Below, piece after piece: positions 93-48,822 of a stretch of 64,000 nucleotides of DNA (the first letter of the stretch is position 1; every line of letters starts with the position of its first letter). This DNA is from Mixia osmundae IAM 14324 (lineage: Eukaryota > Basidiomycota > Mixiomycetes > Mixiales > Mixiaceae). Position numbers and translations under genes: made by a program. The notes below the pieces were generated by a model. It did no database searches. It saw nothing but the letters and a program-made list of their open reading frames with translations, and had not been told where the DNA came from. The stretch is taken from positions 62,001 through 126,000 of the forward strand of contig NW_014575547.1 in the NCBI RefSeq assembly GCF_000708205.1, read 5' to 3'.

Positions 93-1875
93 TTACTTCA
101 TCGAGACAAGCTTGACTTCGAAGTTGAGCCATGCGTTGGCAGGAATGCCGTCTGTACCGGAGCGACCATACGCCAGCGCAGGTGGAACAGAGAGCTTACG
201 TTCGCCGCCGAGTTGCATGCCGGCGATACCCTCATCCCATCCTTTGATGACTTGACCCTTGCCAAGCTTGAATTCGAATGTCTTGCCTGATACATTCTTG
301 TCAAAGACCTTGCCATTGGCCAAGCGACCGATGTAACGCATCCCGATCTTTTTGCCCTTTACGGCCTTCGGGCCTTGTCCAACTTTAGTATCCTCAATGA
401 TCAAGCCAGAAGGAAGTTTGATCTTTGTAGGCTCTGCCTTGGTAGGTACTTTGGCCTCTGCCTTTGGCGCGTCCTCCTTTTCTTGCACTGCCTTGGTCGT
501 TGCCTTCAAAGCTTTAGCATCCGCAGCAGCAGTCTGTGTCTTGGTCTCTTTGTCCTTGTCTAGCAGAGCTTGCGCGGCCGCTTCCTTCTCGCGCCTGGCC
601 TGCTTCTTGCGCGCATTCTTGCTCAGCTTAGCGCTGGCTGTGCTTGCGTCTGCGTCCTCTTCTGCGGCAGTAGGCGTGGTGATGATAGTCTCTGTCACGG
701 CCACGGCCACGGGCTTCTTGGGGCTGCTCCTGTGAGTCTGTCTGAGCGCCAATCTGATCGTCACGCGAGAAACACTGACTTCTTGGCGGCAGCGGCTTGT
801 TCGGCGGCAAGGGCGGCTACATCATCTTCACTGACTTCTTCAAATCTGCTGCTCGCGTTCAAATGCAAATGAGCCAGATGTGGTTGATGTGCGTGGCAAG
901 CTTACCTGTCTTCATCCATCTCGTCTTCTTCTTCCGAGTCGCCTTCGAGCGCGAGGCCCTCCTCGTCGTCGTAGACGCCCATCTCATCGCTGTCGATCTC
1001 TTCATCCGAGTCGATGTCAGAGTCATACAGGCCCTCAGAGTCCTCGTCCGAGTCATAAGGTGGACGGTCATAGTCATAAGGGTCGATTTGACGGATGTAG
1101 TGACCAAGCAATGTGATTGCGTTGTCGCCAGCGACTGAGAAGATGTAAGGCGAGCCAGCGGGCAGGATCAAGTTGAGATTGACTTGCTCGTTCTGCATCA
1201 TTGCATCAGCAGGGACAATGCATCCATTTGAGTGCTTGTGCGCACCGTGTCTGTCTTCAGGCTGCAAAGAACAGTCTCTTGCAAGCGTTCGTCGAGCTCA
1301 CGCATGTAGTCGGCTTCTTCCTCATCTTCTTCATCAATGTCTGCATCTTCATCCGACTCCTCCTCTTCGCTGTCCTCGTCCTCTTCTTCATCGTCATCTT
1401 GCACCTTTGAGCCTTTGCCGTTGGCAGTCTTGCCATTAGCGCGCTTGGCTCTGATAGCAGCCTTGACGGTAGCCTCTGCACTTCGAAGTGCGTCATCGTC
1501 TGCAGCCTCCTGTTCGGCTTCTTCTGCTGCAGCCTCGAGGATGTCCATCTCGTCGCTGTCGAGCTCCTCGTCGTCAGACTCATCGGAGTCGCCAATGTCA
1601 TCCTCCTCAGCCGGCATATCGAGATAACGCATCGTCAGCACCGAGCGTGAGGGAGCACCGGACTCGGACTGTGGCAGCAGGATAGCTGTCGTTATTTGAA
1701 TGTCGCAAGGAGGCTCGAGGACAAAGCTTTCTTCAGGCGTGAAGGTCTGCGACCAGACTCCCTGAACGACGTGCGACATATTGTGCGAGGCGCTGGATTG
1801 CTTCTTGAGATTCCAGAGGGCTACGTCGACGTTGACTTGCCAAAAGTTCGCAAGGTCAAAGACGCTCTTTTGCAC
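93..1875 (-). CDS. FPR4: FKBP-type peptidyl-prolyl isomerase, nucleolar Fpr3/Fpr4-like
   Basis: The C-terminal exon (93 to about 737) encodes a complete FKBP domain with the typical end [18 protein letters not shown], preceded by a Lys/Glu/Ala-rich linker. Upstream exons encode the N-terminal nucleoplasmin-like part: a segment ending CSLKTDT, spliced to [18 protein letters not shown], followed by two long Asp/Glu/Ser tracts. This order (nucleoplasmin-like domain, acidic tracts, basic linker, FKBP) is that of Fpr3/Fpr4, which act as histone chaperones and prolyl isomerases in the nucleolus and chromatin. Three introns are visible: near 1193-1242 (GTGCGC..CAG), 858-902 (GTAAGC..CAG) and about 738-788 (GTCAGT..CAG). 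The 5' end is unresolved. The frame is open to a TAG at about 1900 but has no in-frame ATG, so a small first exon is probably missing. The upper coordinate is only the limit of supported coding. Confidence 0.85.
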
Positions 1876-1972
1876 GCAAAATTTCTCGCGACGATCATTC
1901 TACAGCCGAGCGCGGCACGTGTGGCGACATACATGCACGTATTCTTATAACATCATGGAGTTCAAAACTCAT

Positions 1973-3991
1973 TCAAAGCATCATAGACTCGTTCAGGTGC
2001 TCATCGAGGTGCAGATCGAGTGCCTGAATTCAAGCGTCAGCGTGCCTACGTCAGCGAAAAGAGCCCACTGACCTGTTCATCAGCGAAACGCTGTCCGCAT
2101 ACCTGACCGCCCGGTGGGATCATTTCGCAGATGTAAGGCGACTGGACATGCTCGTCTAGATAGCCGGGCGTATCGCCGTTGTGCCTGTCTGCAGATCTCG
2201 CGACTGCAGACTGCGCTATGACAGGCGACAGCGTCGCAACGTCTCGAGGCAATCGAGGTTCGTCAGGCTGGCGGATGAGCAGGCCAGGCCTGGGTGGCTC
2301 TGCATCGCTATCAGTCTCGTCGTCGTCGTCATCGTCGTCAGTCTGTAGCATGATGCGTCTGCGCTTCGCTATCGCTAGAGAAGGCATTTGCACGGGATCG
2401 CTGTGTAGATCAGAGACTAGCGAATTACGGTTGTTATCTCTGAGCCGGGCGATTTCCTTCTTGTACTGCCGATGGACATGGGCCAGTGTGTCCTCGAGGA
2501 ATTTGTTTTGACCCTTGACCTCGTCAAGCTCGTCCCGTAGCTGGTCGGCCCGCCCTGCCTCGATGCTGACATGCATAGCGATACCGGCGGACATTGTGCG
2601 TTCTAATCGTTCCGCTTTGGCTCTCCAAGCATCCATAGCAGGCCGCATCTCTTCCGCGGCCTGTGAAGCAGCTTGATAGATACCTCGAAACTCTTCAGTC
2701 TCCTTGTCGGCGCGCTTCTTGGCTTTGTTGGCTTTGTCCAGGGACGTCCGGGTCTCTTCTAAGGTCTGTTTGAGCTTGCTGATCTCTTCGAGCAAGGGCG
2801 CCGTGTCGACAGAGCTTCCGACTTGCTGCTTGAGCTCCCCGTTCTCTTTCTGTAGCGCGTCACGCTCCTGCATCGCAGCCTCGAGCGATCGAGTCAAAGC
2901 TTGTATGGTCTTCATGTGAGTCATTGCGTTCTGGTCTGATGACTCAGCTAACAATGGCGGGGGTGATGGCGCGGGCTGCGACGGTGATGGCAGCATGGCC
3001 GGGTGAGACGCAATGGGCGAGCCATGGGTCGGCATGGGGGACAAGACTCTTGGCTGTAGTCCTGCGATGGTTGCGGGCACCGTGGGCGCAGGTACTGGCC
3101 GCGCTACAAGCCGACGCGGCTCGAACCCGCTCAATCCGACCGCACCATCCGACGTTCGCCGTTGTGCCTGCGAATCGACACTCACATGAGCATTTCACAC
3201 CCCGCAAGCTTGTAATCTACCTGATTACTCGGATCTGGTGTGCGATCTCTGGTGCTCTGTGAGGGAAATTGCTCAATAGGCGAGCTTGCCGGCGGTTGAT
3301 CGCGCTCATAGGATCTGAATGTCTCCACATACGGCACCGGTACGGCTTTGAGCACGCGCGGCCGATGATCACCGGTCGGCTTCTGAGTGTGAGCATCAAT
3401 CATGACGACATCATCGTCTTGATTCGCATCCGCTGGCGATGCGGGTCTCGTGGCTCTATCTCGTAGAGCTGTTGCCGGAGGTGCCTCATTGTCTGACACC
3501 GCTCTAAAAAATGGAGTATGACCGTTGTCGCTGCTTCTGCCAGCATGTGGGCGTGCATCATCAAGAGGTGAGTGTCCCAGACGCGCTCTCCCAGCCATAA
3601 CGCCGGGATCAATTCTTGCCGGCACCAGGGGAGGCAGTGGACGCTGATGAGGGCCGCCGAGGACTGCATTCACGGGTCGAAGCCGATAAGCTTCTTCTGC
3701 GCTCGTCTGAGCTGGGTTTGACGTGCTTGGCTCGTTGCTCGTGGACTTTTTGGGTATTTTTGGCATGTAGAGTATGGACGAAGGCTCCGTAGCGCTCGGC
3801 TTGCGTACAAACGGCCGTCTGGCGCCGCTAGACGACATGCTTGCGCACCTATCGCACAAGGGGCCCTCGCTGTGACTGAGCGCTTTCGCTATGGAGCCTA
3901 CAGATTTCTCCATATCTTGAATTTTGGGTTGAATCGCATCGTCAGCGCGCGATTGCGACTGCGACTCCGCCATTCGCATCGGTCCTAGCAT
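1973..3991 (-). CDS. Coiled-coil protein with C-terminal C2H2-like zinc finger, unknown function
   Basis: I do not recognise a named family. Three exons joined by introns of 53 bp (near 3165-3217) and 49 bp (2024-2072) give 638 residues. The first ~350 residues are low-complexity, rich in Pro/Ser/Arg, with a CDRC pair near residue 50. The middle (about residues 360-530) is a long heptad-rich coiled coil with many Glu/Lys/Gln/Leu. An Asp-rich acidic patch follows. The last ~35 residues, only visible after the final splice, hold Cys-x9-Cys-x3-Phe...Leu-x2-His-x3-His, which resembles a single degenerate C2H2 finger. The start ATG at 3991 is the first in frame. The gene's 3' end lies about 70-100 bp from the 5' end of the FKBP gene on the same strand. 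A nuclear or scaffold role is possible, but that is inference. Confidence 0.75.
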
Positions 3992-46700: not shown

Positions 46701-47100
46701 AGGCTCTCAAGCCCATGAGACATAGATTCGGCTGCCCCGCGGGCGAATTCGGCGACGGCGAACGCAGCGTGCAATAGCTTGTGTGAGATCATGACGTGTG
46801 CTCTGCACTCGCAGCCCATGCATAGCTGGCGTTGGGCATCTCTTTTACGTGCGAGCGAGCGTGCGCGAGTGTTTGGGCTGAGAATGTATGCAAAAGGATA
46901 GAACAACGCTCGATCTGATCTATCGAAGTGCTTTGAAAAGGCAAATGTAAGCCTGCCGACCGTATCAAGCATCGGTATGTCCACTGCACTGAGGTCGAGT
47001 CCTGTTCTACATTGTCCAACAGCCGTTGTGCCTTGATCACACTGAATCTTCTGGAAATTAGGTATATATAGTTTGCGCTGACTCGCAGGACACCGTTTCT

Positions 47101-47269
47101 GGCCTTTTGGCTTTGATCAAGTGTAGTATCTGTTCTTTCTAGACGAAACTCTAGAATTAGGTCATCGACCTAACAAAAGTTTCTCTGATCTTTCGCGCCT
47201 GAATCGATTCGATGGCTTGCTGTCGGTCCTTTCGCAATGCTGGCTCGTATCACACTTTCGCGTACCGGT
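47101..47269 (-). repeat. Right arm of 169-bp inverted repeat
   Basis: Inverted copy of 45782-45950. Both arms carry the same ATG-started frame reading outward from the element (ATG at 45839 on minus, 47212 on plus). The three codon differences I compared within it all change the amino acid, so there is no sign of coding constraint. Confidence 0.85.
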
Positions 47270-47478
47270 GTTAAGGCATCCCCTTCTTTTTTGGCTTTTC
47301 CTTTTTCTGCTCCACCTTGCTGTACGCGTCAGCCGAAGCGGGTTGTACACCACGCATGGCTGCCACGACTGGCCTGACGACTCGGTTTTGAAATCACATC
47401 CGGCTTGCGCTCGGTCGATCGCATAGACAAACATTATGTATGACATGCTACGGTGGGGCGTGAGAAAAGATTTTACCG

Positions 47479-47624
47479 TCTGGGATGGCCGAGCGGCAAG
47501 TCAAACTTGTGAGCCTGAGTGACGTCGCTGATATTCTGCACTCTCAGGTTTAAGGCGGCAGTTTTGAATTCCCTAGAATTAGCTGCTGGGTTCGCCCTCC
47601 TGTGTTCAAATCACAGTTCCAGAG
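47479..47624 (+). tRNA. tRNA-Ser(UGA) with anticodon-loop intron and a D-loop insertion
   Basis: The acceptor stem TCTGGGA (47479-47485) pairs with TTCCAGA (47617-47623, one G-U pair), with discriminator G, as in serine tRNAs. Box A is TGGCCGAGCGG (47486-47496), the T-arm is CTGTG-TTCAAAT-CACAG (47600-47616), and the long variable arm GGG-TTCG-CCC marks a type II tRNA. The anticodon stem GCAGT/GCTGC encloses a loop with anticodon TGA (47565-47567). A 12-nt intron sits at the standard site after position 37 (47569-47580). About 52 further nt (47497-47548) interrupt the D-loop between GAGCGG and TTTAAGGCG. Without both insertions the tRNA is 82 nt and folds normally. A Pol III terminator follows. 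Confidence 0.85.
47486..47496 (+). promoter_or_regulatory. tRNA internal promoter, box A
   Basis: TGGCCGAGCGG fits the Pol III A-box consensus TGGCNNAGTGG closely. The D-loop insertion begins immediately after it, so the box itself is not split. The B-box (TGTTCAAATCA) is in the T-arm at 47603-47613. Confidence 0.7.
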
Positions 47625-47628
47625 ATCA

Positions 47629-47634
47629 TTTTTT
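47629..47634 (+). terminator. RNA polymerase III terminator
   Basis: Six T residues four bases after the tRNA discriminator base. This is a normal Pol III stop and supports an intact, transcribed tRNA gene. Confidence 0.75.
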
Positions 47635-47768: not shown

Positions 47769-48822
47769 ATGCTGAGGCGAGTATGCAGGCAATCGCTGCC
47801 CTTTGCTACAGCCCCGAGAGCATGCGGTCGCACTTTCGTTAGCTGCTCACCCCTCCGAGACGCTGCATCCGAGGCAAAGGCGGAAGCAAAGAGGCAAGCT
47901 CGAGAGACGCATTTTGGCTTCAAGAATGTGCCTGAGGGTCAGAAGGAGTCTTTAGGTCAGCCCACCCATTCCGTTCTCGAGTATGGAGCTGATAACAGTC
48001 TGCAGTCTCGTCGGTCTTTTCGTCCGTGGCATCGTCCTATGATGTGATGAACGATGCGATGTCGCTAGGCATCCATCGGCTCTGGAAAGATCACTACGTC
48101 AAGAAGCTCGATCCTCATGGCGGTCTCAAGTGCCTCGATGTAGCGGGCGGGACTGGCGATATAGCCATGCGAATCCTTGATCATGCCAAAGACAAGCATG
48201 CCGATCGCGAGACGTCTGTTCATGTGCTCGACATTAACCCTGACATGCTCGCCGAGGGTCGCAAGCGATTCGCAAAGACGATGTATCACGCCGGTAAGAT
48301 CGTAGCGCTTCACCCAACATTTCTCATGGAGAATGCAGGGCCTCAAGTTTCCTTCGAAGTCGGAAACGCTGAAGATCTCAAGTCGATATCATCAGACTCG
48401 CTCGATGTCTATACGATCGCATTCGGCATCAGAAATTGCACACACGTTGACAAAGTACTGTCAGAAGCTTACCGGGTTCTCAAGCCCGGCGGAGTGTTCA
48501 GCTGTCTCGAGTTCAGCAAAGTCACTAATCCCCTACTTGCAAAGTTAGCCGTCGTCTCTCGCTTCGTCTGCATGGCACCCGCTGACTCCGAGGCAGAGCT
48601 TATGAGGCATACTCCTTCTCGGTCATACCCAACTTGGGACACATCATTGCTGCCGATCGCGACTCGTATCAATACCTCGTCGAATCGATCGTCAAGTTTC
48701 CAACGCAAGAGAGATTCGCAGAGATGATAGAAGACGCAGGTTTCACTGCGCCACAGGGGGGCCAGATCTGGGAAGACCTCACATTCGGCGTGGCGGCAAT
48801 CCACACGGGTATTAAGCTTTGA
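47769..48822 (+). CDS. COQ5: Mitochondrial 2-methoxy-6-polyprenyl-1,4-benzoquinol methyltransferase (Coq5)
   Basis: Three exons (introns of 50 and 53 bp) give 316 residues. A basic mitochondrial presequence ([20 protein letters not shown]) precedes the UbiE/Coq5 methyltransferase domain: [20 protein letters not shown], the SAM-binding [61 protein letters not shown], and after the second intron [20 protein letters not shown]. It performs the C-methylation step of ubiquinone synthesis. The Met at 47769 is the first ATG in frame. The start lies 134 bp after the tRNA terminator. Confidence 0.94.

What the first reader, a model, noticed from the sequence alone, without database searches (positions are those of the whole stretch)
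47479..47624. Serine tRNA gene interrupted in the D-loop as well as in the anticodon loop
Besides a standard 12-nt intron after position 37, about 52 nt (47497-47548) lie between the box A end GAGCGG and TTTAAGGCG. Removing both yields a normal 82-nt type II tRNA-Ser(UGA) with all stems paired, discriminator G and a T6 terminator. The insert begins with a hairpin (CAAGT/ACTTG) and ends with another (CCTGAG/CTCAGG), each abutting a junction. Ectopic tRNA introns are established in archaea and some red algae; I know of none that is standard in nuclear fungal tRNA genes. If spliced, this implies an endonuclease that tolerates non-canonical sites.
Basis: partly seen in the sequence, partly recalled or inferred. 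Interest (0 to 1): 0.82.

Follow-up and report, generated by a model that had tools for sequence, protein, structure and literature searches.

The report
Spliceosomal introns inside nuclear tRNA genes
In the small fungal genome that holds this window, at least six tRNA genes, including the serine tRNA gene first noticed, appear to be interrupted by ordinary messenger-RNA-type introns, so the fungus would need its mRNA splicing machinery to make working tRNAs.

Summary
In detail: window 47479-47624 is a tRNA-Ser(UGA) gene with a 12-nt anticodon intron plus a 52-nt insert in the D-loop. The reading as a non-canonical tRNA-endonuclease intron is probably wrong. Phased one base to the left (47496-47547), the insert looks like a GC-AG spliceosomal intron: donor GCAAGT, branch GCTGAT 16 nt from the end, acceptor TCAG. 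Five more of the 36 tRNA genes that I found in this genome carry a 48-51-nt GT-AG or GC-AG insert outside the anticodon loop: Ser(GCU), Leu(UAA), Arg(UCU), Pro(AGG), Pro(UGG). In all six, tRNA structure alone narrows the excision to 2-30 choices, of which exactly one has GY...AG ends; 0 of 23 ordinary anticodon introns do. No uninterrupted copy of any of the six was found. Boxes A and B are unbroken in the DNA and T-runs follow, so the genes look Pol III-transcribed. The insert's hairpins are at chance level. One protein points to Mixia osmundae or a near-identical strain. My searches found no report of spliceosomal introns in tRNA genes, but subscription journals and preprints were mostly not searchable. 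No RNA evidence was available; splicing is inferred.

The parts
47479..47624 (+). tRNA-Ser(UGA) gene, 146 nt with both introns, 82 nt mature
47479..47495 (+). exon 1: acceptor 5' strand to G18
47496..47547 (+). spliceosomal-type intron, 52 nt, GC-AG, between positions 18 and 19 (donor GCAAGT 47496-47501, branch-like GCTGAT 47527-47532, acceptor TCAG 47544-47547)
   Evidence: structure-only excision search; score against predicted mRNA introns; coordinates
47548..47568 (+). exon 2: G19 to A37 (anticodon TGA 47565-47567)
47569..47580 (+). canonical 12-nt tRNA intron after position 37
47581..47624 (+). exon 3: position 38 to discriminator G73
47486..47496 (+). box A TGGCCGAGCGG; its last G is the first base of the intron, so box A is unbroken in the DNA
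   Evidence: sequence
47604..47612 (+). box B GTTCAAATC
47629..47634 (+). T6, Pol III-type terminator
47435..47440 (+). TATA-like element TATGTA 44 bp upstream (5 of 6 to TATAWA)

Best explanation
The D-loop insert is a U2-type spliceosomal intron (GC-AG, 52 nt). The gene, and at least five other tRNA genes of this genome, is transcribed by Pol III from internal boxes A and B and an upstream TATA-like element. The pre-tRNA is then spliced by the spliceosome, while the short anticodon intron, where there is one, goes by the usual tRNA endonuclease and ligase. Shown here: the sequences, the structural need for excision, the splice-site ends, and that no uninterrupted copies were found. Inferred: transcription by Pol III, removal by the spliceosome, the order of the two reactions, and function of the mature tRNA.
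For: (1) Of 36 tRNA genes found (35 tabulated, plus Arg(CCG), L124, recognised by eye), six need an excision outside the anticodon loop. All excisions of 30-80 nt were scored on tRNA structure alone, 1,729 to 3,619 per gene. The best sets hold 30, 2, 3, 16, 4 and 12 excisions (Ser(UGA), Ser(GCU), Arg(UCU), Leu(UAA), Pro(AGG), Pro(UGG)), and each holds exactly one with GY...AG ends. (2) Control: the same search on every tabulated gene of 100 nt or more (11 genes) raises the structure score by 4.2-8.7 in the six and by at most 1.9 in the other five, and 0 of 23 anticodon introns have GY...AG ends in any equivalent phase. (3) The six read GCAAGT..TCAG, GTGAGC..ATAG, GCAAGT..CCAG, GCAAGT..ACAG, GTGAGC..ATAG, GTCAGT..TCAG, 48-52 nt long; 112 predicted GT mRNA introns of the window, none over 70 nt by choice, have median 52.5 nt. 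(4) With a splice model from those 112 (GC allowed at 2%), random genomic inserts put into the same sites scored as well in 49, 1, 27, 364, 5 and 8 of 20,000 trials. (5) ARAGORN gives the expected anticodon for 0 of 6 unspliced and 5 of 6 spliced sequences; the sixth, Ser(UGA), once its 12-nt intron is removed too. (6) Spliced sequences searched in the genome: 14 matches, all exons of the six genes or of the identical C17 copy. Ser(GCU), Leu(UAA) and Arg(UCU) are needed for AGY, UUA and AGA codons (decoding rules, recalled). (7) 6 of 6 have unbroken boxes A and B and a T-run; 21 of 35 tRNA genes have TATAWA 15-70 bp upstream against 0.4% of random stretches. (8) Introns of U6 snRNA and U3 snoRNA genes are known in fungi, those of U3 removed by the pre-mRNA machinery (PMC5832005, passages).
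Against: No RNA data. The mRNA intron set is ab initio: one predicted GC intron in it is contradicted by the annotated Mixia protein, so the GC-AG rate in mRNA is unknown, while 3 of 6 tRNA introns are GC-AG. With GC penalised, Leu(UAA) and Arg(UCU) score low (4th and 11th percentile of the GT introns), and Leu has a weak branch match. The Leu(UAA) and Ser(GCU) introns contain TTTT, a possible weak Pol III terminator, although Ser(UGA) and Gln(UUG) have TTTT in the anticodon loop region too. Box A of Leu(UAA), TGTCCGAGGGG, departs from the usual TGG start. Boxes and T-runs were in part search criteria, so their presence is partly by construction. U6 of this genome has no intron. The tRNA inventory is incomplete (no Phe, Asn, Cys or Lys gene found). 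No related species could be compared.
Confidence: 0.88

Rival explanations
1. Ectopic tRNA-type introns cut by a tRNA endonuclease with relaxed recognition, as in Cyanidioschyzon merolae or cryptophyte nucleomorphs.
For: Introns in D and T arms exist in nucleomorphs and at many positions in C. merolae (PMC4090602 and PMC3978253, passages), and many nucleomorph ones lack a defined BHB motif. The gene also has a canonical anticodon intron.
Against: All six have GY...AG ends, a donor-like hexamer and the length of mRNA introns, against 0 of 23 anticodon introns with such ends. No strict bulge-helix-bulge (4 of 4 central pairs) at any of 21 equivalent junctions; but only 1 of 23 anticodon introns reaches 4 of 4, and 166 of 5,000 random inserts pass a strict test, so the measure says little and a relaxed motif is not excluded. 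The hairpins are at chance level.
Confidence: 0.06
2. Disrupted tRNA pseudogenes: dead copies with insertions, intact copies elsewhere.
For: Insertions in D or T arms of eukaryotic tRNA genes have been taken for pseudogenes (PMC4090602). The survey did not find every tRNA gene.
Against: No uninterrupted copy of any of the six (for D-arm types); cloverleaf complete after excision; random insertions would seldom have such splice-site ends.
Confidence: 0.03
3. The inserts are kept in the mature RNA as enlarged loops.
For: Nothing here forbids it for the D-loop case alone.
Against: The other five lie at 25/26, 22/23, 45/46, 52/53 and 53/54, where most would break the D stem or the T arm; the ends are splice sites.
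Confidence: 0.01
4. Spliced by the spliceosome, but from a Pol II transcript rather than a Pol III one; here the gene lies 200 bp downstream of U2 on the same strand. (This overlaps with the best explanation, except for the polymerase.)
For: The U2 snRNA gene at 47092-47279, + strand.
Against: Boxes A and B and T-runs are present in 6 of 6, also where the intron touches a box; partly search criteria.
Confidence: 0.07

Closest known systems
Spliceosomal introns of U6 snRNA genes (Schizosaccharomyces pombe and other fungi)
   Same: mRNA-type intron in a short, structured RNA gene transcribed by Pol III (U6 by Pol III: abstract of PMC10484740 in the listing; S. pombe U6 intron: reference list of PMC5832005)
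   Different: Host gene is a tRNA; several different tRNA genes of one genome are affected; U6 of this genome has no intron
Spliceosomal introns of fungal U3 snoRNA genes
   Same: Removed by the pre-mRNA splicing machinery from a structured small RNA (PMC5832005, passages)
   Different: Not tRNA; that paper (2017) names U3 and U6 as the only small structured RNAs known to be often interrupted
Ectopic tRNA introns of Cyanidioschyzon merolae and cryptophyte nucleomorphs
   Same: Introns in D and T arms of tRNA genes of eukaryotic (or nucleomorph) genomes
   Different: In C. merolae they come with BHB motifs; the G. theta nucleomorph ones are 3-24 nt long, many without a defined BHB motif. Those here have GY...AG ends and 48-52 nt
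Canonical nuclear tRNA introns (37/38)
   Same: The same gene also carries one, 12 nt
   Different: Position, ends (0 of 23 in this genome with GY...AG) and length of the second intron

Membership tests
U2-type spliceosomal intron | GT/GC...AG ends with a donor hexamer like that of the genome's introns | tested here: met
   6 of 6; control 0 of 23 anticodon introns
U2-type spliceosomal intron | branch-like site at a usual distance from the 3' end | tested here: met
   GCTGAT, GCTGAC, GCTCAC, ACTAAT, GCTCAT, GCTTAC at 16, 13, 28, 14, 11, 11 nt; the Leu(UAA) match is weak; predicted mRNA introns 11-29 nt, 5th to 95th percentile
U2-type spliceosomal intron | length within the range of mRNA introns of the genome | tested here: met
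   48-52 nt against 5th-95th percentile 45.6-63 in 112 predicted GT introns of at most 70 nt
U2-type spliceosomal intron | removed by the spliceosome through a lariat | not testable with these tools
   needs RNA
BHB / tRNA-endonuclease intron | strict bulge-helix-bulge at the junctions | tested here: not met
   0 of 21 equivalent junctions of the six genes has 4 of 4 central pairs
BHB / tRNA-endonuclease intron | relaxed motif accepted by eukaryotic enzymes | tested here: inconclusive
   my measure recovers only 1 of 23 anticodon introns (4 of 4 central pairs), so it cannot judge relaxed motifs
functional nuclear tRNA gene | complete cloverleaf after splicing, Pol III boxes, terminator | tested here: met
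   boxes and T-run were partly search criteria
functional nuclear tRNA gene | expressed and charged | not testable with these tools
   no RNA data
tRNA pseudogene | an intact synonymous copy elsewhere | tested here: not met
   none found for six of six; a strongly diverged copy could be missed

The most novel reading that the evidence does not exclude
In this fungus the spliceosome is an obligatory tRNA-maturation machine: Pol III precursors of several single tRNA genes, among them the only ones found that read AGY, UUA and AGA codons, are spliced by the spliceosome, some of them by the tRNA endonuclease as well, so that decoding, and through it all translation, depends on mRNA-type splicing.
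Probability: 0.78. Interest if true: 0.92.

Novelty: new variant of a known kind. Interest (0 to 1): 0.86.

Why it matters
tRNA introns are taken to be a separate class with their own endonuclease and ligase. Spliceosomal introns in essential tRNA genes would join the two pathways, show that the spliceosome can act on ~130-nt Pol III transcripts that fold into tRNA, and give a natural test of whether splicing needs a capped Pol II transcript. Practically, tRNA finders stumble on such genes: ARAGORN gave the right anticodon for 0 of 6 unspliced, and the Rfam tRNA model over the genome listed 1 of 6, Arg(UCU) (it scored 63 of 180 candidates), so 'missing' tRNA genes in small genomes may hide introns of this kind.

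Tried and rejected
Rejected: hairpins as recognition signals; strict BHB; a common mobile origin of the six introns (15 pairwise comparisons, z between -2.7 and 1.7); the C17 copy as a second independent allele (3,071 bp identical; 8 of 8 sampled 100-bp points identical over about 130 kb; three further C8 pieces were taken at a wrong offset and replaced). A first intron finder with strict codon scores failed and a signature count was only weakly enriched (59 against 35 in reversed sequence). D-arm patterns gave mostly chance matches, fewer than the reversed control. A search for more interrupted genes among the loci held had only 5 candidates and gave none. U6 has no intron.

Full report
What is there. 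Window 47479-47624 is a type II tRNA-Ser gene with anticodon UGA, a 12-nt intron after position 37, and 52 extra bases in the D-loop. Box A, box B, discriminator G and T6 are present. The hairpins in the insert are real but not more stable than in shuffled sequence.

Phase of the insert. The extra bases can be removed at three equivalent positions. One of them, 47496-47547, starts GCAAGT, ends CTCTCAG and holds GCTGAT 16 nt (from its A) before the end: the signature of a GC-AG spliceosomal intron. The neighbouring COQ5-like gene has a predicted 50-nt intron (47956-48005) with the same GCTGAT element.

More genes. I looked for tRNA genes by Rfam model, box B plus terminator, D-arm patterns and structure. 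This gave 36 distinct genes, the identical C17 copy not counted and two poor structural matches (L055, L083) dropped before the count. The box B listing stopped in C11, short of its 107 places, and not every place was read. Six genes need an excision outside the anticodon loop: Ser(UGA) at 18/19, Ser(GCU) at 25/26 (L016), Leu(UAA) at 22/23 (L066), Pro(UGG) at 45/46 (L065), Pro(AGG) at 52/53 (L048), Arg(UCU) at 53/54 (L093); position numbers are my own assignment from recalled standard tRNAs. Ser(UGA), Pro(AGG) and Pro(UGG) also have a canonical 12-13-nt anticodon intron. I first recognised the five others by eye in the outputs, partly by their splice-site ends, so the test below was made independent of splice motifs.

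Test. For each gene all excisions of 30-80 nt were scored on cloverleaf structure only. The best-scoring sets (30, 2, 3, 16, 4 and 12 excisions, in the order Ser(UGA), Ser(GCU), Arg(UCU), Leu(UAA), Pro(AGG), Pro(UGG)) each hold exactly one excision with GY...AG ends. Run on the 11 tabulated genes of 100 nt or more, the search improves the structure score by 4.2-8.7 in the six and by -0.7 to 1.9 in four others; the fifth, Asp (100 nt), allows no valid excision. None of the 23 anticodon introns tested has GY...AG ends in an equivalent phase. A splice model from predicted mRNA introns puts the six between the 17th and 56th percentile of such introns (130 introns, GC included), or between the 4th and 54th when trained on 112 GT introns with GC at 2%. 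Random genomic inserts in the same sites, with the set of excisions held fixed, reach the observed score in 49, 1, 27, 364, 5 and 8 of 20,000 trials. Shuffles of the inserts gave 7, 2, 0, 49, 6 and 4 of 3,000. GY...AG ends alone are not rare in the larger sets (for Ser(UGA) 8,958 of 20,000 random inserts); it is the whole signal, and its recurrence in six genes, that is improbable. The weakest case is Leu(UAA).

Limits of the intron model. The mRNA introns come from my own gene finder, which itself called the tRNA insert; that and three neighbours were removed before testing. The finder gave full-length conserved proteins, for example a GSK3-like kinase aligned nearly over its length to PDB 4e7w, with 26 residues (60-85) unaligned, but it also made at least one false GC intron. 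The share of GC-AG introns in mRNAs (24 of 150 predicted, the tRNA insert among them) is therefore an overestimate of unknown size.

No intact copies. The spliced sequences of all six, searched together, match only their own exons and the C17 copy (14 matches). Contig C17 equals the end of C8 at every sampled point, so it is assembly redundancy or a recent duplication. A strongly diverged synonymous gene could have been missed. If there is none, the codons AGY, UUA and AGA cannot be read without splicing.

Transcription. All six keep boxes A and B unbroken in the DNA. Where the intron touches a box, intron bases complete it: its first G ends box A in Ser(UGA), and its last G starts box B in Arg(UCU). 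All six are followed by a T-run. TATAWA, which was not a criterion, lies 15-70 bp upstream in 21 of 35 tRNA genes (2 of the 6 interrupted ones; the other 4 match 5 of 6 bases) against 0.4% in random stretches. I infer Pol III transcription. The U2 snRNA gene 200 bp upstream leaves Pol II read-through as a lesser possibility.

Organism. A diphosphomevalonate decarboxylase predicted from the window matches L969DRAFT_89421 of Mixia osmundae IAM 14324 at 374 of 374 residues, apart from a 21-residue gap that I ascribe to my own prediction. Whether the window is that strain's assembly was not shown otherwise.

Literature. Ten searches of an open-licence library listed no report that I could recognise of spliceosomal introns in tRNA genes; one search searched six exact phrases and found no paper. 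Passages seen: PMC4090602 (insertions in D or T arms of eukaryotic tRNA genes taken for pseudogenes; nucleomorph exceptions), PMC5832005 (U3 and U6 the only small structured RNAs known to be often interrupted), PMC3978253, PMC13149111, PMC11782384, PMC7181583, and PMC3376729, a Mixia genome paper in whose text 'tRNA' and 'intron' do not occur. The Mixia genome paper of 2014 (New Phytologist; seen only as a reference) was not looked up, and the U6 intron survey (PMC4829304) was not held. Subscription journals and preprints are mostly outside this library, so novelty is provisional.

Verdict. Observation confirmed; mechanism probably the spliceosome, not a tolerant tRNA endonuclease. RNA evidence is the missing piece.

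Noticed in passing
window 47092-47279 (+): U2 snRNA gene (Rfam RF00004, 103 bits) 200 bp upstream of the interrupted tRNA gene on the same strand.
   Followed up: partly
G000 C8 end and C17: C17 (152 kb) is identical to the end of C8, window included, at every sampled point: assembly redundancy or a very recent duplication.
   Followed up: partly
tRNA genes of G000: An exact TATAWA element 31-57 bp upstream of 21 of 35 tRNA genes, and terminators often TTTTTGC.
   Followed up: partly
tRNA genes of G000: tRNA genes found look mostly single-copy (Gly(GCC) has two), and no Phe, Asn, Cys or Lys gene was found; they may be interrupted too or have unusual box B.
   Followed up: partly
L003 (C1:153958-154031 -): Initiator-like tRNA-Met with a poorly paired T stem in the standard register.
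   Followed up: no
window, predicted genes: Possible frequent GC-AG introns and degenerate donors (GTNNGY) in mRNAs; partly gene-finder error.
   Followed up: partly
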